The notes under the pieces were generated by a model, which did no database searches, was not told where the DNA came from, and saw only the letters and a program-made list of their open reading frames with translations. The translations under genes and the position numbers were made by a program. Below, piece after piece: positions 522 through 58,473 of a stretch of 64,000 nucleotides of DNA (position 1 is its first letter; each line of letters opens with the position of its first letter). Source of the DNA: Thiospirochaeta perfilievii (GTDB taxonomy: Bacteria > Spirochaetota > Spirochaetia > DSM-2461); NCBI RefSeq assembly GCF_008329945.1, contig NZ_CP035807.1, positions 248,001 through 312,000 of the forward strand. Reading direction: 5' to 3'.

Positions 522-1233
522 GTTCATCACCAAGTTTAGTAATTTCGAGAATCTCTATGGCACTACTTTCAAATAACCCAGGACTCTCTTTTGTAAAAAT
601 CTCAGCTTCAATATTTGATTCTCAAAATTCATTAAGATGCTGATTTAAAAGTCCTTCATTTGGTGTTATTAAAACTGTTTTATTAACTTTTAGTTTCCCA
701 CTGGAATAGTGGTTAAATTGCATAAGATTTATATGCATTAGTAAGGTTTTCCCACTACCAGTAGCATTATACAGTGCTATTTTGTTTAGATCTTTTTCAG
801 AATACTTAGTAATTAGATTGACTTTATCCTTTGCTTTTTTCCCTTTGTTATGAGTAGTTATTTTATCATTAATAGTATCTAGTTCACTGTTTAAGTTTTT
901 TAATAATTCATCTTTCTCATTAAAGTATTGATCCAAGTATATCTCTACAAATAAAAGGGATAGATACTGGAAATATTTCCATTTAATATCTCGTCCCATA
1001 GCTGCTGTATGACGTATAATATTATCGTCATATTCTGCTAGTTTATCGTTACTGATTTTCTTCTTAGTAGCTGTTATATTATTAATTAATCTATTATAAA
1101 AATAACTGTTACCATTTTCATCTGCTGCAAAGATAATTGAGTCATTAAACTACTTAGCAAGTTGTTAAAAACTTTCCATTCCCAACAAGGATAATATATA
1201 AGAGTTTATTACTAATTTTTCATTAAATTTCAT
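522..1233 (-). pseudogene. SF2-type helicase, N-terminal fragment with three in-frame stops
   Basis: From an ATG at 1233 one reading frame continues to the IS110 junction. It is interrupted by TAA (1165-1167), TAG (1150-1152) and TGA (622-624) but no frameshift. The translation shows an alpha-helical N-terminal region, a Walker A NATGSGKTLL, and a motif Ia-like KTVLITPNEGLLNQH, as in DEAD/DEAH and type III restriction-like helicases. Everything after motif Ia is missing, replaced by the IS110 remnant. It cannot make a working helicase. Its original system is not identifiable, although a role in restriction or another defence system is plausible from the neighbourhood. Confidence 0.7.
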
Positions 1234-2390: not shown

Positions 2391-2555
2391 ACTTACCTAA
2401 AACCCAAGAGGGATTTAAAAATTAAGAAACACTCATCTAACTGGAGTGAAGAAGATCTTGTAGATTATATTCCTGATAGAATTATTGAAGCTATAAAACC
2501 TACTGATATAAATTGGATACGTGAACTCGATAGCTTATTAGATGATTGGAAATAG
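2391..2555 (+). pseudogene. Unrecognised gene fragment
   Basis: An open frame of about 54 codons without a start codon follows the orphan antitoxin directly. The translation is charged, with Trp residues (SSNWSEEDLVDYI, NWIRELDSLLDDWK), and ends at TAG 2553-2555. It looks like the C-terminal end of a gene joined here by deletion. I do not recognise the family. Its end overlaps the nominal beginning of the next nucleotidyltransferase frame. Confidence 0.25.
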
Positions 2556-2596
2556 AAATAATTGAAATAATACTCTATAAACAGTATTATAAACAT

Positions 2597-2914
2597 ATGA
2601 TTCAGGATAAGAAGTTAGAAAAAATTAGAGATATCATTATAGAGGCTGTTCATCCAGATAAAATTATACTATTTGGTTCTAGAGCCAGAGGAACAAATAG
2701 AGATGATAGTGACTACGATATATTTATTCTAAAAAGCGGAATAGAAAATGAAAGAGTCGTAACAAGAGCTGTTAATAAAGCCTTATTTAGGGGTCATATT
2801 TATGATGAGATTGATTTAATAGCAGCAAATCCTGAAAAATTTGAAAAACATAAAGATAACAGATATTTAGTCTACAAAGATATAAACGATCAAGGTGTAG
2901 CTATATATGGATGA
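2597..2914 (+). CDS. MNT-domain nucleotidyltransferase antitoxin
   Basis: A 105-aa nucleotidyltransferase, counted from the ATG at 2597, with the signature GSRARG and DSDYD (G27-S28, D39-D41 from that start). A longer open frame begins at 2546, but it overlaps the fragment before it and adds a non-conserved leader. The gene overlaps the HEPN gene by 8 bp, the usual arrangement of MNT/HEPN toxin-antitoxin pairs, where the nucleotidyltransferase neutralises the HEPN RNase. It is only distantly related to the other nucleotidyltransferases in the window, so it is a separate lineage. Confidence 0.75.
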   Translation: MIQDKKLEKIRDIIIEAVHPDKIILFGSRARGTNRDDSDYDIFILKSGIENERVVTRAVNKALFRGHIYDEIDLIAANPEKFEKHKDNRYLVYKDINDQGVAIYG

Positions 2915-3287
2915 TAGTTTAGATCCTAAAGTCTGGATAAATAGAGCCAAAGGGAACCTACTCAGGGCTAAATTACCCATGGAAGATGGTATGTATTACG
3001 AAGACTTCTGCTTTGATTGCCAACAATGTGCTGAAAAGGCATTAAAAGGTTTAATTGTTCATTTAGGATTAACTCCACACAAGACACATTACTTTGGTAA
3101 GTTATTTGAAGAGATATCTAAAAGATTAATTCTACCAGATTGGTGTGAGGATGTTTTTGAACTAAATGATTACGCAGTAATAACTAGATACCCTGATGAT
3201 TTTGTAGAAGTAACTAAAGAAGAGTACATCAGAGCCTTAGAGATAGCTGAAAGAGTTTATACATGGATCTCTGGAATTGTAAAATAG
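2907..3287 (+). CDS. HEPN-domain protein (toxin partner)
   Basis: A 126-aa all-helical HEPN protein with the family core CFDCQQCAEKALKGL in helix 2, a PHKTHYF turn and a TRYPDDF segment before the last helix. This subfamily (HEPN/DUF4145- or pfam05168-like) is paired with an upstream MNT gene. The classic RX4HXY RNase motif is not obvious here, unlike in the two other HEPN toxins in the window. Its exact activity is therefore uncertain. The 8-bp overlap with the upstream gene implies translational coupling. Confidence 0.75.
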   Translation: MDDSLDPKVWINRAKGNLLRAKLPMEDGMYYEDFCFDCQQCAEKALKGLIVHLGLTPHKTHYFGKLFEEISKRLILPDWCEDVFELNDYAVITRYPDDFVEVTKEEYIRALEIAERVYTWISGIVK

Positions 3288-3632: not shown

Positions 3633-5675
3633 TTATATTTTATTTGTATACTCCCTTAGATATTTAAAAGGAAATGGTACTACTGTGCTTTTACCTAGGC
3701 TTACAAAATCTACATCCATTGTAGGAAGTAATTTGTCAAAGAATAGTTTTGATTTACCATCTGATTCTATTCTTCTAATTGAACATGTAGATATATTTCT
3801 TTCGTTAAGAGCACCTCTTTGGCCTACAAAATAGAGTGCGTGGTCATTATCTAATTCTGAATATTTTATTTCACCTTGGTTTATTAGTATTGATTTTAGA
3901 CTCTCTTTTGAACGGGAAACCTTTAGTCGTAAACTATAATTCTCTAGTAGAAAATCCCTGATTGATTTTCCCTCCTTAGATTTTAAATTAATAGTTTTAC
4001 TAATAGCTTTTTTACTTAGTTTATTTTGACCTAACAATCTAAACTCGTTAACTACACTATGATCATTACCTAGCATAGGAGTTAATTCATCTGCTAATTT
4101 AATGCCAGTAGCTATACTATCTGGTATTGGTGAATTTACCTCGTGTAACTGATTCTCAAGAAGTTCTAAGTCAGGAAGAACTATCTCTCCATAATTATTT
4201 ATTATATTTATGTTATCATCCCATTTGATAATCCCTTCGACAAAATATCTATGTTCGTACATTTCAATAATATCTAATTGCTTACTAGATAGATCAAATG
4301 AGTTACTCTTAAAATGTTCAAACTTGAGATTCCCTTCTGTGTTTACTACTAGAATAGAGTAAATATATATTTTCCTTTTAGATTCTATTCTACTTTTTCT
4401 AGATATGAATGTTACATCGCTATTAAAACCAAGTACCTTCCAGTTAAATAGAGAGATGGAACCCTTTAATATATCGTTTTTTATTAATAGCTCTTTTAAG
4501 AGAGTCTTGACAATTATCTCTGGTTTTTTAGAGTTCTCTAGAGTATCTAAAACAATGTGCTGCGTCGCATTACCACTACTATCTTTTATATATGGGTCTT
4601 CTTTTTTATCTCTTAAATATTTATCTTTACTATATATTATTACAAAGTTAAGATCAGAATCGGCAACCCCTTTCTCTGTAACTATGATACTATTCTCAGT
4701 AATACTCTGGATTAAACCCTTTAATTTATTAGAGATCTTTTTAGATTCAGTATCAGTAATTGTATTGTAAATATTGATGCTTTTACCTATGAGTAATTTA
4801 GTTAAATCTTTGTTGTTTTTTAACACAGTATTTTTAAGTTCTAAACTAGATAAATCATCATACTTTGAAAACTCAATATTCATATAATCAGAAAGATTAG
4901 TTTTTATACTTTTAAGTACTCTATTATATATCCCCAGTCTACAATTCTGGAAATCTTCTACCGATTTAATGCTTAAACTATCTACATTTACTTTTGTACC
5001 ATCTATACCTAATTTTATATATGATTTTGTATCTTTATCTTTATCAAAGTTTCTTCTTAATGAACCAGTAGAACCATCTACTAAATACTTTGGTTCTTTG
5101 AGGTATCTCTTATACTTTTCTTTTTTCAAATCGTTATAGTTATTATATTCCTTAAGAAAACCAAGGAACTCTCTATAGGTCGAAATATCTACAGTAATGC
5201 AGTTCTTACTGTTTAGTTTAACCTCCGCAATCTTTAAAGCACCTTTTCTATATCCTCGTTTCTCTTTATCTAAATATAGACAGAGTTTTCCTGTTATATT
5301 TGAAAAATGATATTGAGTAAATTTGGATTTAGATAATGCTAGATAGTTAAGTAGTAGATTAGCGATAATTCTAACAGATTTCATATCACTTAAATCATAT
5401 TGATATTTTTCTATTGTAAAATCTACATTACTATTTGCTATGGTATATTTTAAATTATGACTATCGACATCACTATTAAACATGAGGTAAGCACTTTCCC
5501 ACCCAGAATATAGTACAGCTTTAGCTTTGTAATTATCAGTTAAAAACTCATCTAACTCTTTTGCTCCAAACCAATTCTTTTTCTGATCACTTTTAGTAAT
5601 AATAAAGAATTCAAAATCCCTATCTAAGTTCTTCTTTTTTAATTCAATAATTAATCTGTTTGAATAGAAACTCAT
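3633..5675 (-). CDS. ddmE: DdmE-like prokaryotic Argonaute (plasmid defence)
   Basis: The 680-aa protein is the second gene of an operon with a helicase-nuclease gene, overlapping it by 4 bp (ATGA). Its length matches DdmE, the catalytically inactive pAgo of the DdmDE system (about 690 aa in Vibrio cholerae). DdmE uses short DNA guides to find plasmid DNA and recruits DdmD. A MID-like segment is suggested by VIIYSKDKYL (about 345-354), then TQH (371-373) and a helix KTLLKELLIKND with SLFNW after it. The remainder (about 413-680) would be PIWI. No catalytic DEDX tetrad is evident, as expected for DdmE. Sequence similarity is weak by eye, so the call rests largely on partner, order and size. 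Confidence 0.6.
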   Translation of the reverse strand: MSFYSNRLIIELKKKNLDRDFEFFIITKSDQKKNWFGAKELDEFLTDNYKAKAVLYSGWESAYLMFNSDVDSHNLKYTIANSNVDFTIEKYQYDLSDMKSVRIIANLLLNYLALSKSKFTQYHFSNITGKLCLYLDKEKRGYRKGALKIAEVKLNSKNCITVDISTYREFLGFLKEYNNYNDLKKEKYKRYLKEPKYLVDGSTGSLRRNFDKDKDTKSYIKLGIDGTKVNVDSLSIKSVEDFQNCRLGIYNRVLKSIKTNLSDYMNIEFSKYDDLSSLELKNTVLKNNKDLTKLLIGKSINIYNTITDTESKKISNKLKGLIQSITENSIIVTEKGVADSDLNFVIIYSKDKYLRDKKEDPYIKDSSGNATQHIVLDTLENSKKPEIIVKTLLKELLIKNDILKGSISLFNWKVLGFNSDVTFISRKSRIESKRKIYIYSILVVNTEGNLKFEHFKSNSFDLSSKQLDIIEMYEHRYFVEGIIKWDDNINIINNYGEIVLPDLELLENQLHEVNSPIPDSIATGIKLADELTPMLGNDHSVVNEFRLLGQNKLSKKAISKTINLKSKEGKSIRDFLLENYSLRLKVSRSKESLKSILINQGEIKYSELDNDHALYFVGQRGALNERNISTCSIRRIESDGKSKLFFDKLLPTMDVDFVSLGKSTVVPFPFKYLREYTNKI

Positions 5676-8600
5676 AATCCAAAACCCTCCAAGATATATT
5701 CTGCTGCGACTTTATTTATATTCCCTTCTGTATCATAGAGATATGGAATAACAGAAATGTTATCAATCTGTTTTATATTTGATGGAGTATCATCGTCCAT
5801 AAGGATATTTATAATATAGACACTTTTTGCACCAACTATAGAAGCCTTTGATTTAATTTTATCGATATATACACTTTCATCGATAAAATAGTCTCCTTTC
5901 CAATATTTAAAATCTACATAGATACCATCTATAGTTTTGAAGTCGAATTTCTCGTACTGTTCAATATCGAGTTCTTTAAGCTCAATTCCAAAGATCTCTC
6001 TAAAAATAAATGAGCCAGCAACTTCTCCCAAAGCACCCTTATATATGTTGTTAAAAACTGGAGGTGTCAACATATATTTATATTCTGCAAACTCCCTAGC
6101 ATATGATTGTTCTTCAAAGTAATCTCTAAGCATAGGAATCTTTAGAAGATCCGTTAGTCTAGACTCTATCTCATTAACTTCTTTATATTGATTATTAGGT
6201 TTAAATGAGATATCTACATCTTTAAATTCATACTCTTCTTTATACCAATATTCACTACGACTCTTTTCTAGTTCTAAGAATAAATCCTTAAATTTACTAT
6301 CAATAATACTTAGATCAACTACTCCTGGGTTACGTAATACTGTATTTCTCATCTCTTTCCACATTTCTATTGAATATATGCTCCAAGATTCTTGATTTAT
6401 AAATCTAGTAATTAATATAGATGATCTGTTAGATTTTGTAGAAGCTCTATTTATGTACTCGATCTCTTTGTTATCTAAGTATTCATCAGCATCTAATGAA
6501 TCTAATATGTATTCGTACTCTTTAACTGTAATTAGATCCTTGGGTAGCTTAGTTTTACTTAAGATATCCTTAAGTTCATAATCTATTAAGATATCTATAG
6601 TAGGGCTTTTTATATTTGATCTTGAAACTCGACCTAAAGCTTGTAGTATTATTTTAACTACTGCTCTGTTAAATACAGATGTATTATATAGGTTGGTACA
6701 GGTATAGTTATTTCTACTAAAAAGATTTTGTAACATATCGCTAAAATCTTTAGGGGATATTGCACCACTTTGTAAAATAAACTCCAACTGGAAAATATAT
6801 TTATATAGGTCTTTATCATCTAATTCTGAATTGAAAACATTTATAAGAATATTTGTTGGTTTATCTAGGTAAATGCCATTTATATCGATCTCAGATCTTG
6901 CTTCAAAATCATTTATCTTTACATAGTCAGCACCTTTTGGAATAGGAAATTGCAAATTCTGTCCTGCTCCTACAGTCTGATAATTGGTCACAATAAACCT
7001 TCTTTTACCAAGACTAAGATCCTCGATAATTTTACTTTTTTTAACTTCGAAATTATTGCCACTCAATGTCACAATAGATTCACTTTCACCAAAAACCATC
7101 TCAGCAAAATTTTTAAAGAGAGCTAAATCAAACTTTTCATCATCAACTTTTAACTGTTTGTTAAAGAAACATATAAAGGAAGTTAGTTTTCTATTACCTA
7201 TAAAGTGCTTATATGCTGTAAATAATCTAAAATACCTTTGAAGAACAAATTTATCACCACTAACTCTGAATTTAAAGTCATTAGCAGCTCCTTCATCTCC
7301 AAATAGATCAACAAAGCTACCTGAATGAATATAATCAACACTGACATCAATTTCTTTGTAGTATTTAGACCACTCGTCTGCTCTATTTTTTAAGCGATCA
7401 AACTCGCTATCACTAATTTTATAGAAATTATCCTGTAGATTACTTTTTAGATAATCTAGGTCATAGTTATTGAAGTTACTATTTATAGTTGCAGTTGCAG
7501 ATATACCTATAACCATGGAGTTATTACAGATATCCTTAATAAACTTCTCTGGTGTATCTATAAAACTACATGATCTTATTTTTGATCTAGTTAAATGTTC
7601 TTTACTATTAACAATATCAAATATTGAGAAACCATTTTCATAAAAATCTCTATTGAGCAGGTAATCCGTCTTTGATGAAGAGAAAGTCTTATTTTCTAAA
7701 ATATTCTCTGAAAGTATTTTTATATTATCACCATCTAAATGAAAATGGCTAAGCATTGTTTTAACACAGTTATCAAGACTCTCATTTTCGTCACAATAGT
7801 CATTGGCCCAATATTGAATGCTATTCTGGAAGCTTTGTATAAACCCATTTAGCCTACTTAATACAAAAGTTAACCTATTGAATTCATTGTTCTCTACTTT
7901 ATCTGTAATTCAATTTCCATGTCTTTCTATATCCTGTACAAAATATAGTAACTGCCACCTATTGCTGGTAACGGTATGGTAGTAATAATCATATAAAAGG
8001 AAGTTTTTCGAGAAGTTATTTAAATCTTGGTGACTTTTAACTGGGGATTGTAGATTTAATTCATTATATAATTTAGATGAAATATCCTGTAACGTTATTA
8101 ATTGCTCACTGTTTTTTTCCTTGTTTATTTCATATGGTAGTTCTCTTCCTCTGATTCCTTGATAGATGTTGTTAAATAGGCTTATTACAGATATTCGATG
8201 CCTTATACCAGTATCTATAATATTGTTAATTAGAGCATCTTTTGAACTATCAAATTCATCTATAAATACTAAATCATCTTTTATTATATCCTTGAACCCT
8301 ATTGAACGACCCAAAAGGGATGTATTAGTTCTAATAAACTTATCTACCGAGAGGAAAATAATAGTGTTCTCTTCTATATATATTGATGGGTATAACTTAC
8401 CTACCCAAAATAGATCTTGGTCGTCTTTTAATTTATTTAGTTTAGAAACACCAATACTTGTAAGATACTTTTTTAAAGCTATTCTAAATTGTGGTTCTAG
8501 CTCTTTAGATAGTTTTTCTTTTATCTCTTTTTTATATGATTCATCATAAACATTATTATACCTATTTATATACTGATCTAAGTTTCTGTATTCCTTATCC

Positions 8601-8917
8601 TTAAAATCATCTGGTATGTATGTCTTAATCTCACTCCAGTTATTTAATACTGAATCTACATTTGAATCTATAAATAGAACATATTTCTCAAAATCTTCAT
8701 AATTATCATTATCAATAAACAGTTGTTTTAATTCTTCTAATGGTAAATTCTTTTTAAGATTAGTAATGAAATAGATCTTTCGTTTTTGAGAATTAAAACT
8801 ACAATAATTATGAAACATGTATCTAATTACACTATATGTCTTACCGAAACCTGTAGGCATATTCAATAGCAATAAGCCATTCTTAAATTTGCAATACTTC
8901 TCTAATAATTCTTTCAT
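5672..8917 (-). pseudogene. ddmD: DdmD-like helicase-nuclease, interrupted by in-frame TGA
   Basis: One reading frame runs from ATG 8917 to 5672 (1081 codons) with a single TGA at 7910-7912. This leaves open parts of 335 and 694 aa. The first part has Walker A MPTGFGKT (20-27) and a DEFD motif II (220-223). The second has motif III-like SATA (86-89) and motif VI-like QALGRVSRSN. A C-terminal PD-(D/E)XK nuclease has GALGEVAGSF, then EKFDFK and YVDFKYWKG (D615, K617 of the second part). SF2 helicase plus C-terminal nuclease beside a pAgo-like gene is the DdmD layout. No frameshift is present, so a substitution created the stop. Without readthrough the nuclease half would need its own start, and the helicase is inactive. 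Confidence 0.65.
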
Positions 8918-9021
8918 ACTTCAAAACAATAACACTAGAATGTTATATCTGTCAAATATTTAGACTTAAAGGGTTATCACAAATTGATTATCAGTCTATA
9001 GCATCTTCTTTATCTCAATGA

Positions 9022-9043
9022 TATAATATTTTTAGGAGGGATA
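9022..9043 (+). promoter_or_regulatory. -10 box and RBS of the WYL regulator
   Basis: TATAAT at 9022-9027 is followed by a strong Shine-Dalgarno AGGAGGG (9034-9040) three bases before the ATG at 9044. A convincing -35 box is not visible, and the resulting leader would be very short. The 126-bp region back to 8918 is shared with the divergent ddmD promoter and is the natural place for autoregulation by the WYL protein. Confidence 0.4.
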
Positions 9044-9910
9044 ATGAGTAAAGAAATTCAGTGGGTTAAAAATAAGCGATTCGAATTTATTGAGGAGAGT
9101 CTCTACTGGAGAAGTACTATTAGACGAAAGGATATTATAGAAAATTTCAATATTTCTATAGCACAAGCCACTAGCGATTTATCTGAATATAAAAAACTAC
9201 ATTCTGAGAATCTAAATTATAATAGAAGTGATAAGTGCTACAAAGTTTCTGATAATTTTACACCCTATTATGCAAAACTAATATCTAACAATTATTTTGA
9301 CTCTATTACAGTAAGAGAAGCAAATACATCATATTACACACCTGAGATCGCTGTTGTTCCTAAAGTAAATAGAGAAGTTAAACCAGAAATATTACAAAAT
9401 ATAGTTCACTGTATAAATAACAACTGTAGTATAAAAATAAAATACATTTCAATGAATAGTTCTAAAGAGACATGGAGATTAGTTACACCACACTCATTTG
9501 CTGATGATGGAAGTAGAAAGCATATTAGAGCGTTCTGTCACAACAATAAAGATTTTAGAGATTTTCAAATTGGTAGAATACTAGAAACTGGTGAATTAAA
9601 TGATTTTCAGGTTGATAAATCATTGGATCTTTTATGGAGTAGTAAATTAATTATTCAAATAACTCCAAATCCTAAGTTAACTCTAGAGCAACAAAAAGGT
9701 ATTGAGTTTGAGTACAATATGGTAAATGGATTAAGGGATATTGAGATAAAACCAGCATTTTTTAGGTATTTATGTAATAATCTCGATATTGAAAAACGTA
9801 AATCAAGAGAGCCGTACTTAGTAATAAACAACATGAAAGAGATTGCTAACAAAATAAAACTACTTGAGGAATTGACTAAAAATAATACTAAAAATATAAA
9901 TATAACCTAA
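9044..9910 (+). CDS. WYL-domain defence regulator (CapW/BrxR type)
   Basis: The 288-aa protein starts with a winged HTH. The order RFEFIEESLYWRSTIRRKDI, then NFNISIAQATSDLSEYK, then SENLNYN and KCYK is typical of the CapW/BrxR group. A WYL domain follows at about 135-205 (IKIKYISM, then WRLVTPHSF, HIRAFCHNN, FQIGRI) and then a C-terminal extension. These dimeric repressors control phage-defence operons and are thought to sense nucleic-acid ligands. It is divergent from the ddmDE operon, which is the likely target. Unlike its target, the gene is intact. Confidence 0.8.
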   Translation: MSKEIQWVKNKRFEFIEESLYWRSTIRRKDIIENFNISIAQATSDLSEYKKLHSENLNYNRSDKCYKVSDNFTPYYAKLISNNYFDSITVREANTSYYTPEIAVVPKVNREVKPEILQNIVHCINNNCSIKIKYISMNSSKETWRLVTPHSFADDGSRKHIRAFCHNNKDFRDFQIGRILETGELNDFQVDKSLDLLWSSKLIIQITPNPKLTLEQQKGIEFEYNMVNGLRDIEIKPAFFRYLCNNLDIEKRKSREPYLVINNMKEIANKIKLLEELTKNNTKNINIT

Positions 9911-10396: not shown

Positions 10397-13300
10397 TCAA
10401 TTTACATGTGATCTGACATTTTCTAATAAATATTTTATACATGTATCAAAATAACGATACTTTCCCCATAAGTGCATATTTCCAATTATAAATAACCTCT
10501 CCTTTGCTCTGCTAGCAGCTACATTCAATAGATTAGGTTTACTAGAAGCCCATGATTTTGCTCCTGGCTTTTCAGGATTACCGCCTAAAACAAGTATTAC
10601 AACATCAGCTTCTTTTCCTTGAACAGTATGAATTGTTCCAGCATTAATGCCATTAAACTTTTTTGCAATTTTTTTTAGATTCCTAACAACATCTCTAAAA
10701 GGTGATATTAAAAATATTTGATTACTAGCAATATCTTTTTCAAGTAAGTATTGAATTAAGTGTTCTGTCTGTTTTCCTTCTTCCTTAATCCAATGACCCT
10801 GTGCGTCTTTTGATTGAACATCAATCCATTGACTAGGGGTAATAATATTATTACTTTGAATATTATTTTTCCCTGAAACCATCATTCCATCATATGCTAT
10901 AGTATTACATATATTAAACATTGGATTATTACACCTTCTATGTACTTTTAAAGGAGAACCAATCCAAATTTTACTTTCATCAGTATCAATATATGTTCCC
11001 CAATTATTTACCCTATCTGCAAGCAACTGAACAGAACTTCTTGAAGGCATGAATATATCAGGGACATTAAACCGTTTTTTAATAGCGTTTTGCCAAGAAA
11101 ATGGTATATTAACTATAGGCTCTAACTGAAACGGGTCACCAACAATTACTGAATGTTGTGATCTCCATATTGCACCAGCAGCATTTTGAGGAGCAGATTG
11201 GCCAGCTTCATCAATTAGTAACCAACCCAAACTTTCTTTTTTTAATCTTGAAAATAATCTAGAATATGAAGCAAATGAACTAGATAATACAGGTACAATC
11301 AAAAACAGTGTTCTCCAACAATTAAGAACAGATACCTCTTTAACCTCTTTTGGAAGGCTACCTGTAAGAACATCGTTGAATAGTGCATTTAAATTAGTTT
11401 TTACACTTCGAGCATTAATCATAATAAAAGCTTTATGTAACTTTAGTGAAGCGATAAAAAGTTCAGCTCTGACTTTATTCCACTCATCATCAGCCCATGG
11501 TGAAGACTTTTCAGTATAATCAAGATTCTTCTTCCATCTATTAATATCAGGGATAGTATGTTCTCCCCACTTCTCTTTAGAATCTAAAATTATTTTTTCA
11601 AGATTTTTTAAATTATCTCTATTAGAATCTAACTCTTTTTTACTTTCTATGAATATAAGATTATAGTGTTCATAATTACGGTCAATATCATTTTGTAACT
11701 TTCTTAATTCAGAAAGTTTTAAAACCAATTCTTTATCTAATTCTATGAATTCTAAATCTTTAATATTCCAAATTTTGAACTTTCTACCAAATGTAAATAT
11801 TATCTCTAATAAACTAGGTTTAAACTCTTTATGTCTCAATCTATAATCATTATTAATTTCTATATTATCATTAATTGATCTTATCTCTTGTTGCAGTTTT
11901 TCTTTCTCTTTTTTCCAAATTTCTTTATTCTCAAAGTTTTTAGAATAAATCGCTTCATTCCGCAATATTACTTCTCTAATTTTATCTATATTAATAATAG
12001 CATTGAATACTTCTTGTCTCTTATTTCTTAATCTGTTTTCTAAACTGTGGAGTTTCTTAAATTTCAATAAGGACTTAGTCCATTCTTCTTTGCATAATAC
12101 TGGATCAGTTTCAAAATATTTTAGTTCTTCTAAAAAATGTTTTACGTTACTATCATGCCTACCAAAATAGAAATCTGATGCAAACTTACTCCTATTTGAT
12201 TTGTTCCCTAAACGTCCTGCGAACAGGCCCCATGATTCATTAGACATTACTTCATTACTTATTTCTTTAAAATAGTTAATATATTCCAGCCATGATTCAT
12301 CAATGGCATTAATACCTGGTATCTCTAAAGTAACATTTTCTACAGCTCCATTATTATTAGAAGCTATTACCATCTCATAACCACAAATTTCTTCTTGGAG
12401 TTTTTTTATCTTCCTTTTATAACTTCCTGATTCCCATTCTAAAGAAGAATCTTCTATAAAACCATTGAATGGATCATCTAGTGAAGCAATTTTAATAGCT
12501 CTTTCTACTACAATATTCGCCATCAAATCTCTCAATAAAGTAGTTTTACCAGTTCCAGGAGGGCCATTGACAGAAAATAAATCTACATTACTATTAAATA
12601 AAGAGTTTAATGCAAATTGCTGGCTCAATACCAACGGAAAATGACCTTTACTAGGCCATCTACCTTTAGGATATTTATTAGGTGCAAGCATATTGTAAAC
12701 AAACTTTAAATCCTTTCTACAATCTACTCTCTTATTAACGTTTGTATCATTATTGATTGTTAAATATTTAGATAATGGTACACCTAAGTCAGAATTAGTA
12801 GTAAAACTTGACAGTTTCTCCAGTTCATCTAAATAGAAACTATTTAAAAAATCAGATTCTGTATTAGAATCTTTAGATTCATAGATAGATACAGGCTTAA
12901 TCCTTATCTCAAGATTGTTTATTAATTTTTCATACCCTAATCTATCAATTATAGTATTAAACATTATTTTTAAGTTTCTATAATTTGGTTCTAATGAATT
13001 TCTATCATTTCTACCAAATTGGTTAATATAATCATTAAAAAACTGTTTTATATCTTGAAATGACTCATCAAAACCCTTTAACCAATTTCTAGAATTAATA
13101 TCATTTTCTAATGTATTATTTATTGCCCAAGAAGAAGAAGATAAAATAATCGAGTCTTCTATAGGTATACCCATTGCATCTAAGGTTATAAAAAATAAAC
13201 AAGATTCTGAGAGTTCTCTTTCATTAAAAATATTTTCATCATGACCAAATTTTTCTGAAAGTATATTTTCTATAATATTCTGCTTGTAGACACCTATGTA

Positions 13301-13501
13301 AAGATGATATTGACGAGACTGCTTATATTCTAACTTTGGGTAATGCTGACCTGAAGGATTATTCCAAATGCAAGAATAATCATCCTCAAATAAAAAAACA
13401 GGGTCTTCTTTACTGTGATTATTTACAAATGGAATAGATTGAGGAGAGAAATATTCGATTGCTTTCCAATAACCTAAAATACTTGATTGTTTTTTGAACA
13501 A
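10397..13501 (-). CDS. Large SF1 helicase (Upf1/Dna2-like)
   Basis: The 1034-aa protein has an uncharacterised N-terminal domain of about 280 residues. A split SF1B helicase core follows: Walker A NGPPGTGKTTLLRD near 310, a long charged coiled-coil-like insertion at about 360-690, motif II IDEAGQSAPQ, motif III VGDPFQLEPI, then TIHTVQGKEADVV and AASRAKERLF near the C-terminus. This layout (AAA_11/AAA_12) is seen in Dna2/NAM7-type helicases found in many defence islands. It is transcribed in the same direction as the type I restriction genes, 230 bp downstream of hsdR. No nuclease motif is visible. A DNA or RNA helicase in defence is likely but unproven. Confidence 0.75.
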   Translation of the reverse strand: MFKKQSSILGYWKAIEYFSPQSIPFVNNHSKEDPVFLFEDDYSCIWNNPSGQHYPKLEYKQSRQYHLYIGVYKQNIIENILSEKFGHDENIFNERELSESCLFFITLDAMGIPIEDSIILSSSSWAINNTLENDINSRNWLKGFDESFQDIKQFFNDYINQFGRNDRNSLEPNYRNLKIMFNTIIDRLGYEKLINNLEIRIKPVSIYESKDSNTESDFLNSFYLDELEKLSSFTTNSDLGVPLSKYLTINNDTNVNKRVDCRKDLKFVYNMLAPNKYPKGRWPSKGHFPLVLSQQFALNSLFNSNVDLFSVNGPPGTGKTTLLRDLMANIVVERAIKIASLDDPFNGFIEDSSLEWESGSYKRKIKKLQEEICGYEMVIASNNNGAVENVTLEIPGINAIDESWLEYINYFKEISNEVMSNESWGLFAGRLGNKSNRSKFASDFYFGRHDSNVKHFLEELKYFETDPVLCKEEWTKSLLKFKKLHSLENRLRNKRQEVFNAIINIDKIREVILRNEAIYSKNFENKEIWKKEKEKLQQEIRSINDNIEINNDYRLRHKEFKPSLLEIIFTFGRKFKIWNIKDLEFIELDKELVLKLSELRKLQNDIDRNYEHYNLIFIESKKELDSNRDNLKNLEKIILDSKEKWGEHTIPDINRWKKNLDYTEKSSPWADDEWNKVRAELFIASLKLHKAFIMINARSVKTNLNALFNDVLTGSLPKEVKEVSVLNCWRTLFLIVPVLSSSFASYSRLFSRLKKESLGWLLIDEAGQSAPQNAAGAIWRSQHSVIVGDPFQLEPIVNIPFSWQNAIKKRFNVPDIFMPSRSSVQLLADRVNNWGTYIDTDESKIWIGSPLKVHRRCNNPMFNICNTIAYDGMMVSGKNNIQSNNIITPSQWIDVQSKDAQGHWIKEEGKQTEHLIQYLLEKDIASNQIFLISPFRDVVRNLKKIAKKFNGINAGTIHTVQGKEADVVILVLGGNPEKPGAKSWASSKPNLLNVAASRAKERLFIIGNMHLWGKYRYFDTCIKYLLENVRSHVN

Positions 13502-13605: not shown

Positions 13606-13731
13606 CTAACTCTGCACCCATTTGAGATCTTTTATATTTCCTAACGGTTGCCAGTATCCATTTGAAATAAATTCCTGAATCTTCACTTCATTACCTTTTG
13701 GAACCCAAAGACCGTAAAACTTTTCACTCAT
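13606..13731 (-). CDS. Short ORF coupled to hsdR (41 aa)
   Basis: Its ATG (13731) shares a base with the hsdR stop (TAATG), so it would be translated by coupling. The product is Trp/Gly-rich (EKFYGLWVPKG, NGYWQPLGNI, KWVQS) and ends at TAG 13606-13608. It may be a true small gene or the start of a longer protein lost by deletion, because the DNA after the stop has no continuing frame. I do not recognise it. Confidence 0.4.
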   Translation of the reverse strand: MSEKFYGLWVPKGNEVKIQEFISNGYWQPLGNIKDLKWVQS

Positions 13732-16700
13732 TATGATATACTTCCACCTACACCTTTAAATTTTTCTACAAAGAGTGATATTTTCTGGAAGACACTCTGT
13801 TTTTTTGTTAAATACCCCGGGTTCAGAGGACTCATCTTAGGTAGAATAGAAGTTAGCTCTGTACCGTTTTCACTTGCATATTCACGCTTTAAAGATGTTG
13901 TTATATATCTTTTGGCAGCTTCTACGTTTAAAGATTCCCCAGATATAAGCTCTTTAACTTCTCTTTTTTGTTCTTTTTGTGCAAACATAAAAAAGCTATC
14001 AATAATACTAGATTTATCCTGAACACTATCAAGGTCTGTCTGATTTATAAAATCTACTACAAGACTCTCTTTTGCCCTGTTTCCAATACTTGCACGGATA
14101 ACACGTCGTATTTCGTCTATAAGATCATCTTTGTCTTTTACATTTTTATTGCTTTCAAAGATTAATTCCAGGATATAATCAAGGTTAATCTCCTGGGATT
14201 TTAAAAGATCAACTTCAAAAACAACTTCATCCCAATCAATAGTAGATTCTACCTGCTCGGCTCCAGTTCTATCTCTTCTTATCCAGTCACGGATGTCATT
14301 ATATGTTGAACGGTAATCTTGTATAGTTCTCTCTGCTGGAACTGTAATTTGCTCCATGTTTTGAATGTCTTCTTCAGTTACATAATGAGTTGCCATAAAT
14401 TCTTCTATAGCTTCAGGATCTTTTTTATCTAAAGTCTGTAGAACTTTTAATGTTGTAAACTCATCGTAGTTTTGTAGTAAGTTCTCTACTTTTAAATATT
14501 CACCAAAGAGTTTAGCAAACTCCTTTTTATCCTTCTCTTTAACGATTTCTTCAGGATTAGGGAATCTAGTATTTAACTCACTTACAATATCAATATAACC
14601 TCGTTTGGCTTCACCAGTGGCTATATCTGTAAAACCTTCTAGGTACTCTTTATAGCTCTTCTCTAAAACCATATTTTTAGTATTGCTATCACCAAAAAGA
14701 GTAATTGCATCAATTGTTGACTGTTCAAGGTCTCTAAAGGTAACAATATTTCCAAAGGTTTTAGTAGAATCATATATTCTGTTAGTCCTGGAGAATGCTT
14801 GCATTAAACCATGGTATCTAAGGTTTTTATCTACAAAGAGTGTATTAAGGGTAGGAGCATCAAAACCTGTTAAGAACATCCCAACAACAATAAGTAGATC
14901 AATTTCTTTACTTTTTACCCTTTTTGCAAGATCACGGTAGTAGTTTTGGAACTCTTTACTATCTACTCCAAAGCTAGTTTTAAACATTTTATTGTAGTCA
15001 TCTATTGCTGAAACTAGAAACTCTTTTGCACTCTGATCCATAGCTGTAGGTTCAAATGTTTCATCGATTATATCACCAATAGCATTTTGTTCTTCATTTG
15101 CTGCAAAGGAGAAAATTGTTGCTATCTTAAGGGGTTTATCACTATCTTTCTGTAGGTTACTTATAGCCTCATAATAACATTTAGCAGCATCTACACTGCT
15201 AACAGCAAACATTGCATTAAAACCACCACCATTTCCATGTAAGCGGTGGGTCTTCTGTTTAAAGTTATTAAGAATGTAGGTGGATATCTCCTCTATTCTA
15301 GAAGGGTGTAGAAGAGCTTTTTTATTCTCTGCTGCACTTAATTTCTTCTCATCGGTTTCTGTTTCAAACTCTTTGAACTTTGGTCTAACATCATTATAGT
15401 CAACTTTGAATTTAAGAACCTTTTCATCTCTAATGGCATCTGTAATTACATAGGAGTGTAACTCTGAACCAAATACAGATGCTGTTGTCTCTGCACCTAA
15501 GGCATTCTCAGGGAATATTGGTGTACCAGTAAAACCGAATTGACAGAACTTCTTAAATTTCTTTGTAAGGTTCTTTTGAGCTTCTCCAAATTGAGATCTA
15601 TGACACTCATCAAAAATAAATACAACATTCTTATGATATACAGGTAGGTGACTATCACCCTTAATAAGGTTGTTTAACTTCTGAATAGTTGTGACAATAA
15701 TTTTATTATCATCCTTATCAATATTGCTTTTAAGCCCTTTTGTACTGTCTGATCCATTTACACTATCAGGGGAGAATCTTTGATACTCCTTCATGGTTTG
15801 AAAGTCTAAGTCTTTTCTATCTACAACAAAAAATACCTTATCTATAAAATCTAGTTCAGTTGTTAACCTTGCAGCTTTAAAACTTGTCAAAGTTTTTCCT
15901 GATCCAGTAGTATGCCAGATAAACCCACCACTATCAGGTGAAGATAACTTTTTAGTACCAAAGGAACTCTCAATTTTCCAAAGTATTCTTTCAGTAGCAG
16001 CTATTTGGTATGGTCTCATAATAAGTAGAGTGTCACTAATATCAAAAACAGAGTATGTTAATATAACTTTTAATAGAGTATTCTTTTGAAAGAAAGTCGC
16101 AGTAAAGTCTTTAATATCCTTAATTAGAGTATTATCTGACTTAGCCCAGTTCATACTGAAATCAAAACTGTTTTTATTCCTTTTTGTAGTATTAGCAAAG
16201 TACCTGGTATCTGTTCCATTAGATATTACAAACACCTGTAAGTATTTAAAAAGTGAGTTGTCACTATTAAAGCTTTCTTTACTATATCTATGAACTTGGT
16301 TAAAGGCTTCGCGGATTGCAACACCACGCTTTTTAAGTTCTACCTGTACCAATGGTAATCCATTAACAAGAATTGTTACATCATACCTATTGTGATGGGA
16401 ACCAATCTGCTCAAACTGATTTATAACCTGAACTTTATTCCTAGAAACATTCTTTTTATCCACTAAATGAATATTCTTTAACCTACCATCATCCATGGTA
16501 AAGTCATAAACATGATTATCATGAATTTTGCGTGTTTTATCTACAATATTATCACTGGGATTATCAAGATACTCCTCTACAAAACGTATCCATTCCCCAT
16601 CTAAAAATTTTATATCATTTAAATCTTCAAGTTGAACTCGAACATTGGCTAGCATAGTTTCTCTACATCTAAGATCAGGAACATATTCATACCCCTGATT

Positions 16701-16835
16701 CCTTAAATCCTGTATTAGTTCTCTTTCCAGGTCAGCTTCTGTCTGATATGACTCACATATATCCCACTCTTTAGTGTACTTATCTAATATTATGAAATTC
16801 TTTGTTTCTGTAATAGTTTTATAATTTGTCACCAC
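13731..16835 (-). CDS. hsdR: Type I restriction enzyme, R subunit
   Basis: The 1034-aa HsdR has an N-terminal PD-(D/E)XK endonuclease (YDVTILVNG, then VQVELKKRG, about 155-170). An SF2 translocase follows, with Walker [12 protein letters not shown] near 310, [10 protein letters not shown] and FTGTPIF, and motif VI-type QAFSRTNR. A helical C-terminal domain contacts the methylase. Such enzymes cut unmethylated DNA far from the recognition site after ATP-driven translocation. It is the last large gene of the hsdM-hsdS-yhcG-hsdR operon, seven bases after the gene before it. All key motifs are intact and the length is normal. Confidence 0.95.
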
Positions 16836-16842
16836 TAATTCC

Positions 16843-17850
16843 TTATTTTAAATATTTTCTCTCTTCAAGGCGTTGTCGTACTTCAATTAGAGCATTATGC
16901 AGTTTCTCTTCTAAGATCTCTTTTGGAGGAAGGTTTGTCCAATATTTAGCAACCATAATATTATCTTTTTGCATATTTAATAGTTCTACTTGTTCAGAGC
17001 CCGCATCAGCACATAGTATAAGACCAATTGGGGCTTCCTCTCCCTCTTGTCTATCGTACTTATTTAACCAATTTAGATAGAGTTCCATCTGTCCTTTATA
17101 GGCTGCTTTAAAATGACCAATTTTTAACTCTACAGCAACCAATCGTTTTAGTTTTCGATGATAGAAAAGAAGATCCAGATAGAAATCCTCTCCATCAATT
17201 ATCATTCGTTTTTGACGCTCAACAAATGTAAAACCGTTACCAAGTTCTAAAATAAAGAGTTCCAACTCTTTAATTAGTGCATTCTCCAGTTCGTTCTCCA
17301 AATAACCTTCCTGAAGTCCAAGGAAATCAAGAATATACGGGTCTTTAAAACTTCCTGAGAAACCACTATCTTTTGTTAGTTCATTCTGTGTATCTGCAAT
17401 TTCTGATCGCTCGAATGCTTTCCGTTCAATCTGATTTCTTAGTTCACGTTTACTCCAGTGGGACTCACTGGCTGCCTGGGCATAAAACATCTGTGCTTCT
17501 GGAGATTTTAGAGGAATTAATGTGAGAAAGTGGGACCAGCTTAATTGTCGTGCCAATGGAACGACAATTTCAACATCCGGGAAGACTTCTGCAAACTGCA
17601 TCATTCTTCGTAAATTCCTTACTTCAAAACTTTTTCCATGAATGGTAACAAGCTCCTTTGATAATTGTGAAACAACTTGTTTACCATACTCAGCCCTCTC
17701 CCCTTTAAGTATATCCTGATTAATCCGTTTACCTACATGCCAATAGGTAATAGATATAGCACTATTAACAGAAGCAATAACATCAGCCTTACCCCTGTCT
17801 ATTAGAGTTCTTATATCAACTAAAAGATCACTAAAGAACTTATTCTCCAT
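16843..17850 (-). CDS. YhcG-family (DUF1016) PD-(D/E)XK nuclease
   Basis: The 335-aa protein has a DUF1016 N-terminal domain (about 1-160; [28 protein letters not shown]) and a C-terminal PD-(D/E)XK-like nuclease ([20 protein letters not shown] with KIGHF). It is inserted between hsdS and hsdR, a frequent location for this family, but its role there is not settled. The start is taken as the ATG at 17850, which overlaps the hsdS stop (TGATG) and has GGTGGAG eight bases upstream. A TTG at 17853 is the other option. The sequence is intact. Confidence 0.85.
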
Positions 17851-19058
17851 CAAACACTCTCCACCTTAGGAAAACTAAGCAACAGATCACGATAATACTC
17901 ATACTGCTTCTTTCTTAACTCTATCTCCTTAGGTAAACCTTCACTAATAGATGTAGTAAGTGTATCAAATTTATCTAGGATGGATACTATTTTTTCTTGG
18001 GCTACTAGAGATGGTATAGGAATTTTAAACTCTTTAACTTTAGAGTCAGAAATAGCAGGATATGCTGAACCACTTTGGTTTTCTTCAACATAGTTCTTAA
18101 AATCTGAAGTTGTAATGAAATAGAATATCCATTTAGGTAGAACAAATTCTTTATTAGCTCTTAGAACGCAATATCCAGTACTAGCAACATCACCAGCAAA
18201 ATTATCACTAATCAAACAAAGTCTTTGTTGGGTAGGTCTAGTTGTAGCAAATATTACATCGTCTTTTAAAACTAACTTCTTTGCTCTACTAGGTGCATTT
18301 TCTGAATTGATTTCAGTTACCTCTAATATAGAATTTGTCTCACGACATACTGATGATAAGTCAATATACTTATGATAACTATTAATCTCAGACCATTTTA
18401 TGTTTTTAGTTGGTATCGTAACCTCCCCTAAAGTTTTCCACTCAACTTCATCATCATTAAATGTAAGTAATTTATCACGATAATAGGTATATTGTTTTTT
18501 TCGGTTAGTAAGTTCTGTAGTAAGTTCTGTAGTAAGCTCTGTAAAGGTGTCCAGGATACGAACAATCTCTTCTTGGACTTTTAAGGGAGGGATGGGGATT
18601 TCAACAGCTCCAATTTGTCCGAAAGTAATAGCAGGCATAGTAGAAGCCCCACCTTTAGAGTTTAAACTTTTGTATATTTTAGACTGAGATAAGTATGTGT
18701 ACAAATATTTATTAGTTATTTTTTCTGATTTCAAGGTAATTTTAAACATATTATTTGCAATTGCACCATTGTTACAAATAAAAACTTTTCCTGCAGCTCT
18801 TGCTCCATAACGAATCATTACTAATTCACCTTCATTCTTTATATATCTTTGCCCAGGGTTTTCAATATAACGTGGTGGTTCATTATCATTTACAAAATCT
18901 ACAATACGTAGAAAACGAACAAAACCATCTTTTTTCCCCAGAAATTGGCTTGAGATATCAACTTGAATCCCTTGAGAGAATGAAGCAAAATCCTTAAGTT
19001 TCTTCCATTCAACATCAACCCCTTCTAATAACTTTTCCATGTAATTATGACTAGGCAT
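17850..19058 (-). CDS. hsdS: Type I restriction-modification specificity subunit
   Basis: This HsdS of about 402 aa has two target-recognition domains, each followed by a conserved helix ([18 protein letters not shown] and [18 protein letters not shown]). The start is placed at 19058 rather than 19085: AGGAG lies seven bases before that ATG, and it overlaps the hsdM stop. The central helix has three tandem TELT units encoded by a 12-bp repeat. In EcoR124-type enzymes the number of such units sets the spacing between the two half-sites. The gene overlaps both neighbours, so the whole operon is translationally coupled. Confidence 0.9.
18508..18543 (-). repeat. Three 12-bp tandem repeats inside hsdS
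   Basis: Plus-strand GTAAGTTCTGTA occurs at 18508-18519 and 18520-18531, and with one change (GTAAGCTCTGTA) at 18532-18543. Each unit encodes four residues (TELT) in the spacer helix between the two recognition domains. Slippage would change the count by whole units without breaking the frame. Confidence 0.9.
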
Positions 19059-20601
19059 TTTCAATCTCCTGGATAATTGAGTCAATTGATGTTCGTAGAG
19101 AGTCTATTTTGGTAACAGTTTCAGATATCTCTCTGTTTAGCTCAGTGATATCAATTACTTCTCTAGTGTCCTTTGCTTCAACATAGGATGATACAGATAG
19201 GTTGTAATCATTTTCTTCTATTTTACTATTATCTATAGAAACTGCGACATAATCTTTGTTCTCTTTATTGTCAAAGATCGTCATGATCCCTTTGATATGA
19301 TCATCAGTTAGTACATTGTTATTAGTCTCTTTCTTAAAGAATTCTTCTCCACTTGCATCTATAAACTGGGTTTTGTTTTCTGTTTTATGCTTTGATAGTA
19401 CTAATATGTTTACTGCTATAGAAGTACCATAGAAAAGGTTTGGTGCTAGGGATATTACAGTCTCTACAAAGTTATTATCAATTAAGTATTTTCTAATCTT
19501 CTGTTCTGCTCCACCACGGTAGAAAATTCCAGGGAAACAAACTATTGCTGCTCGCCCTTTACTGGACAGGTAGCTTAAAGCATGAAGAACAAAGGCAAAG
19601 TCTGCCTTTGATTTAGGAGCTAACACACCAGCAGGAGCAAACCGTTCATCATTAATTAGAGTCGGATCATCTGTACCAATCCATTTAACAGAATAAGGAG
19701 GGTTAGAAACTATGGCATCGAAAGGTTTATCATCTCCGTGATGGGGTTCTAAGAGTGTATTACCGAGGGCAATATTAAACTTATCGTAGTTAATATTGTG
19801 TAAGAACATATTCATTCTAGCAAGATTGTAGGTAGTATGATTTATCTCCTGACCAAAAAATCCATCTTCTATAATATGGGAATCAAAGTGTTTTTTAGCT
19901 TGAAGAAGTAGAGAACCTGAACCGGCTGCAGGATCATATATCTTATTTACACTATCTTGCTTGTGCATTGCAAGCTGGGCAATTAGTTTTGAAACATGTT
20001 GGGGTGTAAAGAACTCTCCACCGGACTTTCCGGCATTAGCTGCATAGTTTGAGATTAGAAACTCATAGGCATCACCAAATAGATCAATATGATTATCTTC
20101 AAAGTCTCCAAAACTTAGACCTTCAACCCCTTTAATAACAGCAGCTAAACTGAGGTTTTTATCTTTAACTGTATTACCAAGCCTATTACTTGTTGTATCA
20201 AAGTCAGCAAACAACCCTTTAATATCAACTTCTGAAGGATAACCATTTGCAGAACTCTCTATTGCTGTGAAGATCTCTTTTAAATCGCTATTTAAGTTCT
20301 CGTTAGTGTTTGCACTCTTAGCTATATTTGTAAAAAGTTGACTAGGGTATATAAAGTAACCCTTGGTTTTTATTGCATCATCTTTAATTTCAGGTGTGAT
20401 TACTGAATCAGGTAGACTTGCATAATTTACACTATCATCACCAGCTTCTATATAGTTTATGAAATTCTCACTAATAAACCTGTAGAATAGTGTTCCTAAA
20501 ACAAACTGTTTAAAATCCCAACCATCTACAGATCCCCGAACATCGTTTGCTATTTTCCATATTTGAGCTTGTAACTCAGCTCTCTGTGTATTACTTGACA
20601 T
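19051..20601 (-). CDS. hsdM: Type I restriction-modification DNA methyltransferase subunit
   Basis: The 516-aa HsdM has an N-terminal helical domain ([20 protein letters not shown]) and an N6-adenine methylase fold. SAM-binding motif I is [12 protein letters not shown] (about 220) and the catalytic motif IV is NPPYSVKW (about 298). With HsdS it methylates adenine in the target and protects host DNA. It is the first gene of the operon, with AAAGGAATC before the ATG. Its length is typical of the family and no defects are seen. Confidence 0.95.
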
Positions 20602-20907: not shown

Positions 20908-21044
20908 TAAAGCGCCAGCTCAGATGTATGCACATTGCCTTGGATTAGGGATACGCAGGGTTGCGAAGCAAAACCGCAGGTTCGAAGCGAAGCGTAGCCC
21001 GTAGCAGCCCGGTCTGGCATGCCAGAATCCCCCAAAAACACTAT
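20908..21044. repeat. Structured GC-rich repeat, copy 2
   Basis: Related to copies at 9933 and 23938. It keeps GGATTAGGGATACG, the hairpin TTGC-GAA-GCAA, and the final hairpin TCTGGC-AT-GCCAGA followed by ATCCCCC. The last hairpin differs from copy 1 (CCTGGC/GCCAGG) by a compensatory C-G to T-A change. The first hairpin is replaced by an 18-nt segment (20922-20939) that is the inverse of one in copy 1. It lies just downstream of the rmuC relic. Confidence 0.7.
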
Positions 21045-21065
21045 CTAAAATTACTAAACCTACCC

Positions 21066-22370
21066 CTAATCACCCCCCTCCTCTAACATACCAGTCCCCT
21101 CATCTTCTATATCCAATGTCCCAACATCCTTTAGTGTTTTTAAGGGTATCTATTGAGTTTGCTGCAGTGCTCATATGTTTATGTACCTTATCTAGGTACT
21201 CTTCAAACTTAACAAACTCTGTTTTAACAGCTTCTAGTACCTTCCATACCTCACTACTCTTTTTTTGAACTGCTAGGGTTCTAAATCCCATGTTTAGACT
21301 ATTTAATAGTGCAGATAGGGTAGTTGGACCTGTAACAGTTATTTTGTACTTGTTTTGCAAGGTTTCAACTATACCTGGCTCCCTTAAAACCTCTGCATAG
21401 AGTCCCTCTACAGGTAGAAACATAATGGCAAAGTCTGTGGTGTGGGGAGGATCTAGATACTTAGTTGATATATCTTTAGCAAAACTCTCTATAGATTTTA
21501 TTAGAGCCTTTCTAGATAACTCTACAGTAACACTATCACCATCATCATATGCGCTTAATAACCTCTCATAGTTCTCTATTGGGAATTTAGAGTCTATAGG
21601 CATCAAGACCTCATTAAAGCGTACTCTACATTTGCCTGACTACCCTTTTTAGTTGCTACATTTTGGGAGTACTGCTGGGGAGAGAGAATCTCTTCTAATA
21701 TGTTACCTAGCTGATACTCACCTAAAACACCACGGGTTTTAACATTGGATAGAACCTTCTTTAAGTCCCCTACACCAGTTGCTATAGTCTGCATCTCACC
21801 TAGACCCTTGTGTACAAGTTCAAGCCTCTCACTAACCTGTTTAAAAGACTCACCTATCCTTTTCTCTAATGTAGTTTGCAGCTTCTCGTCTACAGTTTTT
21901 CTCATCTCGTTAATCTGTTTACTGATATCTTCTCTTAGTAGATTAAGGTGCTTCTCAACAGACTCTTTAATCTCTTTTAATCTTAGTTCAGAATCTTTAT
22001 TAGCTAGGCTATTCTGATTGTTAAGTAATGTGAAGTTTTTCTCCAGCAAATTACCTCACTCTTTTGTATTAATTTTAAACTCATCTTGAAACGAAGTAAT
22101 TGTTTTAGATTGTGACTCTTTAAAAGAGTTTAAGGTTGATGCTTGCTCCTCCCTACTTTTTTTAGCCTGATCGTTAATCTCTTCTCTGTTAGTTCTAAAA
22201 TCCTCTTTAATATCTTTGTTAGTTTTATCTAATAAGGTATCGAACTTAGTAATCTGATCCTCTAAATCCCTTAGTTGAGGTTTAACATCGATATTAACCT
22301 TTCTTGTAAGGGTGAGTATTATATTTGTTATAACCACTACAATTAAAACTATTAATAATATGTTTGTCAT
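21066..22370 (-). pseudogene. rmuC: rmuC, broken in several places
   Basis: RmuC is an inner-membrane-anchored coiled-coil protein with a nuclease-like core that limits recombination. Here it is in three frames. The N-terminal part starts at ATG 22370 (AAGGTGG before it) with a membrane helix (LLIVLIVVVITNIILTL) and a coiled coil. The middle part (21603-22049) carries GVLGEYQLGNILEEIL. The C-terminal part (21100-21606) carries MPIDSKFPIENYERLL, TDFAIMFLPVEGLYAEV and TGPTTL. Between the middle and last parts, the usual residues between NVEYAL and LPIDSKFP are missing, with a frame change. The tail near 21110 is shifted once more. It cannot make a functional protein. Confidence 0.8.
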
Positions 22371-22506
22371 TTTGCCACCTTTTTGTACTGATAATTGAAT
22401 TTTACTTAGGTTGTGCGAAAGGTTGGTTCGGGGAAAACGTTGATAAAGGTTAAATATATTAATAATATTATTTATCACTAAACAGATATTAAGTAAATGT
22501 GATCAA

Positions 22507-58408: not shown

Positions 58409-58473
58409 AGTAAATAAAATTGCAAAAAAATTATAAATTAGTTACACTTTCTAAAAAGTTCCATGGAGTTATC

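What the first reader, a model, noticed from the sequence alone, without database searches (positions are those of the whole stretch)
3633..9910. DdmDE-like plasmid defence operon with a WYL regulator, silenced by one nonsense codon
An SF2 helicase with C-terminal PD-(D/E)XK nuclease, overlapped by a 680-aa pAgo-like gene, matches the DdmD-DdmE pair known from Vibrio cholerae in size, order and domains. Here ddmD has a single TGA at 7910-7912 between helicase motifs II and III while the frame continues perfectly for another 745 codons. The pAgo gene and regulator are intact. That suggests very recent loss, readthrough, or a population mixture. A CapW/BrxR-type regulator beside DdmDE is itself worth noting.
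Basis: partly seen in the sequence, partly recalled or inferred. Interest (0 to 1): 0.85.

Follow-up and report, generated by a model that had tools for sequence, protein, structure and literature searches.

The report
Plasmid-destroying DdmDE operon with stop codon
This is a bacterial anti-plasmid defence operon of a known kind (DdmDE) with a known kind of regulator beside it, in which one stop codon at an otherwise conserved tryptophan position has very probably switched off the helicase-nuclease, making it a fresh example of a defence system caught just after being lost.

Summary
ddmE (3633-5675, minus, 680 aa) and the ddmD frame (5672-8917, minus) are real DdmDE genes. Both match solved DdmE and DdmD structures by sequence and by predicted fold. 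The ddmD frame carries one TGA, codon 336 (7910-7912), between motifs II and III. All 12 nearest relatives have Trp there, and the catalytic motifs conserved across 58 relatives are all kept. TGA is an ordinary stop here: the only tRNA-Trp found is canonical CCA with a 5-bp anticodon stem, no tRNA reading UGA was found, and no other in-frame TGA break appeared in 400 kb of sampled chromosome. The likeliest reading is a genuine, recent nonsense mutation that silences DdmD and leaves DdmE without its effector. An assembly error cannot be excluded without reads. Low-level UGA readthrough, which would insert the right residue, is possible but unproven. The divergent WYL gene is a CapW/BrxR-family regulator, but its signature Trp is Lys159. 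A WYL gene upstream of ddmDE is already published for Vibrio cholerae (VC1772), so that pairing is not new. Verdict: a new, degenerate member of a known system in a defence island rich in broken genes.

The parts
3633..5675 (-). ddmE: 680-aa long Argonaute-like guide protein, frame intact, own Shine-Dalgarno GGAGGG
   Evidence: PDB sequence hits DdmE 9iw3 9e-15 and 8u0j 2e-6; AF2 pLDDT 85.5; Foldseek DdmE 9ixm E 3e-37, TMq 0.72
5672..8917 (-). ddmD frame: SF2 helicase plus C-terminal PD-(D/E)XK nuclease, interrupted once
   Evidence: PADLOC DdmD; PDB LcDdmD 9ix4 7e-60, VcDdmD 6e-37; AF2 pLDDT 86.0; Foldseek DdmD E down to 5e-58, TMq 0.79-0.85
7910..7912 (-). in-frame TGA, codon 336 of ddmD, followed by A; aligned with Trp in all 12 nearest relatives
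7910..8917 (-). predicted truncated product, 335 aa, motifs I and II only
5672..7756 (-). downstream ORF from the next ATG (codon 388), 694 aa; no Shine-Dalgarno seen before it
8918..9043 (.). 126-bp divergent promoter region; TTGACA-N18-TATTGT for ddmD at 8955-8926; ATAACA-N6-TGTTAT at 8929-8946 is a possible operator but no better than chance
9044..9910 (+). CapW/BrxR-family wHTH-WYL-WCX regulator, 288 aa; WYL Trp replaced by Lys159
   Evidence: PDB CapW 9c5g 1.5e-40, BrxR 7t8k 3e-31

Best explanation
This is a DdmDE plasmid-defence operon, probably acquired horizontally, with a CapW/BrxR-type regulator transcribed away from it, inactivated by a recent nonsense mutation. In the working system DdmE carries a DNA guide, pairs with plasmid DNA and loads the DdmD helicase-nuclease, which destroys the plasmid. 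The regulator would normally hold the operon low and release it on a signal. Here translation of ddmD stops after 335 codons, before motif III and the nuclease. DdmE can still be made from its own ribosome-binding site but has no effector, so the locus should no longer clear plasmids. Shown: family identity, gene order, the stop, its position at a Trp site, kept catalytic motifs, and lack of recoding machinery. Inferred: loss of function, recency, horizontal origin, and selection for loss (for example by a resident plasmid).
For: Sequence and fold matches of both proteins to solved DdmDE. The stop is at Trp in 12 of 12 nearest relatives and 20 of 58 overall. The read-through protein disagrees with 8 of 107 strongly conserved columns, rank 46 of 59, within the range of uninterrupted relatives and about equally before and after the stop (6% and 8%), so there is no clear further decay. 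TGA acts as a stop: 29 of 201 long sampled ORFs and 6 of 29 window genes end in TGA; one tRNA-Trp(CCA) and no UCA anticodon among the tRNAs found; no tRNA-Sec over cut-off. No other in-frame TGA break in 20 x 20 kb of chromosome. The neighbourhood holds other broken genes: RmuC with a TGA and a frame change and a truncated DEAD helicase. At least four relatives carry broken ddmD. Inactivation of the related ApsAB anti-plasmid system is selected in plasmid carriers (PMC11096173), and this genome has a 32.8-kb ParA-bearing contig.
Against: No reads, no second strain and no expression data, so a single-base assembly error remains possible. No homologue exists in the 198 nearest genomes held, so the lesion cannot be dated. 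Nothing ties the 32.8-kb contig to the loss. The conservation rank is on the divergent side, which a gene dead for some time could also give.
Confidence: 0.7

Rival explanations
1. The TGA is a sequencing or assembly error and the operon is intact and active.
For: A single substitution in an otherwise open, conserved gene; no reads can be inspected.
Against: In 400 kb of the same assembly only one weak in-frame break candidate (TAA) was found and no TGA one; the assembly is in two contigs; a nearby gene has more than one lesion.
Confidence: 0.17
3. ddmD has become a working two-piece protein: a 335-aa N-terminal part and a 694-aa part started at codon 388.
For: Both ORFs are long and each keeps conserved motifs.
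Against: No Shine-Dalgarno before codon 388; the split runs through the helicase between motifs II and III and loses codons 337-387; no split but otherwise complete ddmD was seen among the relatives.
Confidence: 0.04

Closest known systems
DdmDE of Lactobacillus casei (PDB 9ix4, 9iw3, 9ixm)
   Same: Best match among solved structures for both proteins; same domain order and predicted folds
   Different: ddmD here is broken by a TGA; a CapW-type regulator lies upstream
DdmDE of Vibrio cholerae VPI-2 (PDB 8u3k, 9ezy, 9bgk) with upstream WYL protein VC1772
   Same: Helicase-nuclease followed by inactive Argonaute, HTH-WYL gene upstream, type I restriction genes near by (PMC12409362); L069 shows the same WYL-ddmD arrangement
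   Different: About 22% DdmD identity to the Vibrio-type copy in L069; nonsense codon; regulator lacks the WYL Trp
DdmDE of Nostoc sp. UHCC 0926 plasmid pn2 and related cyanobacterial and methanogen copies
   Same: Closest relatives, 36-39% DdmD and about 29-34% DdmE identity, adjoining genes
   Different: Frames intact, Trp at the stop position, no WYL gene beside them
CapW / BrxR WYL regulators (PDB 9c5g, 7tb5, 7tb6, 7t8k)
   Same: Near full-length wHTH-WYL-WCX match at about 29-34% identity, divergent to a defence operon
   Different: Lys159 in place of the Trp thought to couple ligand binding to DNA release
ApsAB of Escherichia coli
   Same: Same logic: helicase-nuclease plus Argonaute-like protein; also found truncated in nature and lost under plasmid selection
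   Different: ApsB is a different Argonaute type; the protein here matches DdmE

Membership tests
DdmDE | DdmD: SF2 helicase motifs I, II, III, VI plus C-terminal PD-(D/E)XK nuclease | tested here: met
   All present across the frame; PDB and fold matches
DdmDE | DdmE: long Argonaute-like fold adjacent to and downstream of ddmD | tested here: met
   4-bp overlap
DdmDE | DdmE catalytic PIWI residues absent | not tested
   No residue-level superposition was made
DdmDE | ddmD encodes one uninterrupted protein | tested here: not met
   TGA at codon 336; filed as a degenerate member of the family by descent, not as a working system
DdmDE | Guide-directed plasmid elimination | not testable with these tools
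   Needs a plasmid-loss assay
CapW/BrxR regulators | wHTH-WYL-WCX architecture of about 290 aa | tested here: met
   Near end-to-end match to CapW and BrxR structures
CapW/BrxR regulators | Conserved Trp-His in the WYL motif | tested here: not met
   His160 kept, Trp replaced by Lys159; 8 of 8 relatives aligned here and 3 CapW structures have Trp
CapW/BrxR regulators | Palindromic operator of about 20 bp in the promoter | tested here: inconclusive
   ATAACA-N6-TGTTAT overlaps the ddmD promoter but 158 of 300 shuffles do as well
UGA-to-Trp recoding genome | tRNA-Trp(UCA) or 4-bp-stem tRNA-Trp(CCA); widespread in-frame TGA | tested here: not met
Selenoprotein | tRNA-Sec present | tested here: not met
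   No match over the family cut-off

The most novel reading that the evidence does not exclude
The TGA is a tolerated or selected dimmer: basal tRNA-Trp readthrough makes a trace of full-length, correct DdmD, keeping an anti-plasmid system at a level that permits a resident plasmid, and the altered WYL regulator no longer switches it normally.
Probability: 0.07. Interest if true: 0.7.

Novelty: new member of a known kind. Interest (0 to 1): 0.32.

Why it matters
If true, it is a clean, single-lesion example of an anti-plasmid Argonaute system being lost while its guide protein and regulator are still readable. That makes the cost of DdmDE and the fate of orphan DdmE directly testable. It also extends the WYL-DdmDE arrangement known from Vibrio to a distant lineage whose nearest DdmDE relatives lack the regulator, suggesting that such regulators are added to DdmDE more than once. 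It does not change what is known of how DdmDE works.

Tried and rejected
Genetic-code change or suppressor tRNA: rejected. Selenocysteine: rejected (no tRNA-Sec over cut-off; the nearest relatives have Trp, not Cys). Operator palindrome: nothing above chance. Close homologues for dating the lesion: none in 198 nearest genomes; 2 of 393 in the phylum sample by the DdmD model, the window's own genome included. Viral contigs: one Vibrio-type locus only. WYL next to ddmD as a general rule: rejected; among the loci fetched only the window and L069 were found to have it; the Pfam scan counted a third WYL member among upstream ORFs that was not traced. An E. coli search with the Vibrio-type ddmD found nothing. 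Two key DdmDE structure papers were not held. A first break scan with a codon-usage threshold missed ddmD itself because its codon usage is atypical, so it was repeated without the threshold.

Full report
What is there. Two genes on the minus strand overlap by 4 bp. The upstream one (5672-8917) is open for 335 codons, has TGA at 7910-7912, and then runs open for 745 codons to its natural TGA. The downstream one (3633-5675) is 680 codons with its own Shine-Dalgarno. A 288-aa gene reads the other way from a 126-bp shared promoter region. All coordinates in the finding are right.

Identity of ddmD. The rejoined frame matches PADLOC's DdmD model (3e-31), L. casei DdmD (7e-60) and V. cholerae DdmD (6e-37) among solved structures. 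Matches lie on both sides of the stop in one frame. An AlphaFold2 model built on 43 sequences has pLDDT 86.0. Its first 20 structural matches are all DdmD, TMq 0.79-0.85, followed at a distance by DinG and XPD helicases.

Identity of ddmE. Pfam, NCBIfam and PADLOC find nothing. Phmmer finds L. casei DdmE at 9e-15 and V. cholerae DdmE at about 2e-6. The AlphaFold2 model (pLDDT 85.5) matches DdmE structures first (E 3e-37, TMq 0.72) and then human, Thermus and other Argonautes.

Relatives. The genome-contig scan returned 57 loci, and further loci came from plasmids and whole genomes. In a tree of 59 DdmD proteins the window falls in a fully supported set of 13 with cyanobacteria and two methanogenic archaea, on a long branch, at about 40% identity at best. 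No homologue was found in the 198 nearest genomes. The scattered distribution suggests horizontal transfer (inference).

The stop. In the alignment of 58 relatives, 20 have Trp at the position of the TGA, including all 12 nearest, and none has a stop. The window keeps the nucleotide-binding, DExD and SAT motifs and the nuclease E...E..D...D-K residues. At columns conserved in at least 85% of the other sequences, the read-through protein disagrees at 8 of 107 (rank 46 of 59) and about equally before and after the stop. The gene therefore shows one lesion and no clear sign of further decay.

Is TGA a stop here? The tRNA genes found by the Rfam tRNA model include one tRNA-Trp, anticodon CCA, and no UCA anticodon. 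Its anticodon stem has five pairs (U27-A43 to U31-A39), with A9 and G24 (my reading), so it lacks the features linked to UGA readthrough in PMC13092985. No tRNA-Sec reaches its cut-off. Of 201 long ORFs in 400 kb of sampled chromosome, 29 end in TGA. In that sample plus the window, the only same-frame breaks not followed closely by a start codon were one weak TAA case in the sample, one TAA case in the window, and the ddmD TGA. Recoding is therefore very unlikely, and breaks of this type are rare in this assembly, which lowers but does not remove the chance of a base error.

Consequences. Motif III and the nuclease are lost from the first product. The next ATG, codon 388, has no Shine-Dalgarno. 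DdmE can be translated on its own but should have no effector. According to the review PMC12409362, DdmE acts by guiding DdmD to plasmid DNA. Loss of plasmid clearance is therefore the expected result, by inference. PMC11096173 reports repeated inactivation of the related ApsAB operon in plasmid-carrying lines and truncated copies in natural islands. Here the genome has a 32.8-kb contig with ParA, a resolvase and a reverse transcriptase, and four relatives have visibly broken ddmD (L039, L057, L065, L067). A causal link to the contig is speculation.

The regulator. It matches CapW (1.5e-40) and BrxR (3e-31) structures nearly end to end, and 656 plasmid records hold relatives. In 393 genomes of the phylum sample only this one has a full-length match; the rest are weak partial WYL matches. 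The eponymous Trp, present in the eight relatives aligned here and in three CapW structures, is Lys159. In CapW that Trp is proposed to couple the WYL domain to DNA release (PMC9122588), so the regulator may respond abnormally (inference). A WYL gene upstream of ddmDE is already described for V. cholerae VC1772 and is under study there. Among the loci fetched only L069, a Vibrio-type contig, was found to share the arrangement.

Setting. The operon sits in a defence-rich stretch with an SF1 helicase like MkoC, type I restriction genes, and MNT-HEPN pairs. It also holds broken genes, including RmuC with a TGA and a frame change. This fits real gene loss in an island rather than an isolated artefact.

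Verdict. The regulator pairing is known, the regulator carries an unusual substitution, and silencing remains inferred. Most likely a recent nonsense mutation (0.70), then an assembly error (0.17), low-level readthrough (0.09) and a split protein (0.04).

Noticed in passing
window 9044-9910 (codon 159): The CapW/BrxR-type regulator has Lys where all relatives aligned here have the eponymous WYL tryptophan.
   Followed up: yes
window 20950-22478: RmuC gene broken by an in-frame TGA at 22056-22058 and a frame change further on; a second damaged gene in the same island.
   Followed up: partly
window 10397-13501: 1034-aa SF1 helicase matching PADLOC MkoC (8e-71) over its helicase part only; next to ddmDE, not part of it.
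   Followed up: partly
window 13731-20601: Type I restriction-modification genes with an extra DUF1016-like nuclease gene (16843-17853) between hsdR and hsdS; ddmDE in V. cholerae VPI-2 also lies near type I restriction genes.
   Followed up: no
window 2546-3287 and L127 8841-9501: Near-identical MNT-HEPN pairs about 6 kb apart, a recent local duplication.
   Followed up: no
window 43755-44066 and 58420-59457: A second WYL-type gene and a partial near-identical copy of its middle part about 15 kb away.
   Followed up: no
window 622-1098: DEAD/ResIII helicase fragment cut off after motif I, a likely pseudogene.
   Followed up: partly
window 51559-56968: UvrD-like helicase and PD-(D/E)XK nuclease pair resembling the operon that CapW/BrxR relatives flank on plasmids in L147 and L149, but here without an adjacent CapW/BrxR gene.
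   Followed up: no
L006, L007, L008, L009: DdmDE operons, an anti-plasmid system, carried on plasmids themselves (Nostoc pn2, Lactobacillus intestinalis, Persicobacter pPP11, Cetobacterium p6).
   Followed up: partly
L010 and L011 (G363 contig C6): One genome of the same class carries two quite different intact DdmDE operons about 190 kb apart.
   Followed up: partly
L039, L057, L065, L067: Four relatives have broken ddmD genes (frameshifts, deletions, an insertion), so loss of DdmDE recurs.
   Followed up: partly
L081-L084 (G000:C1:3664463-3665046): Six tRNA-Val(TAC) genes, three on each strand, in an inverted cluster near the contig end, with a seventh at 29-101 of the contig.
   Followed up: no
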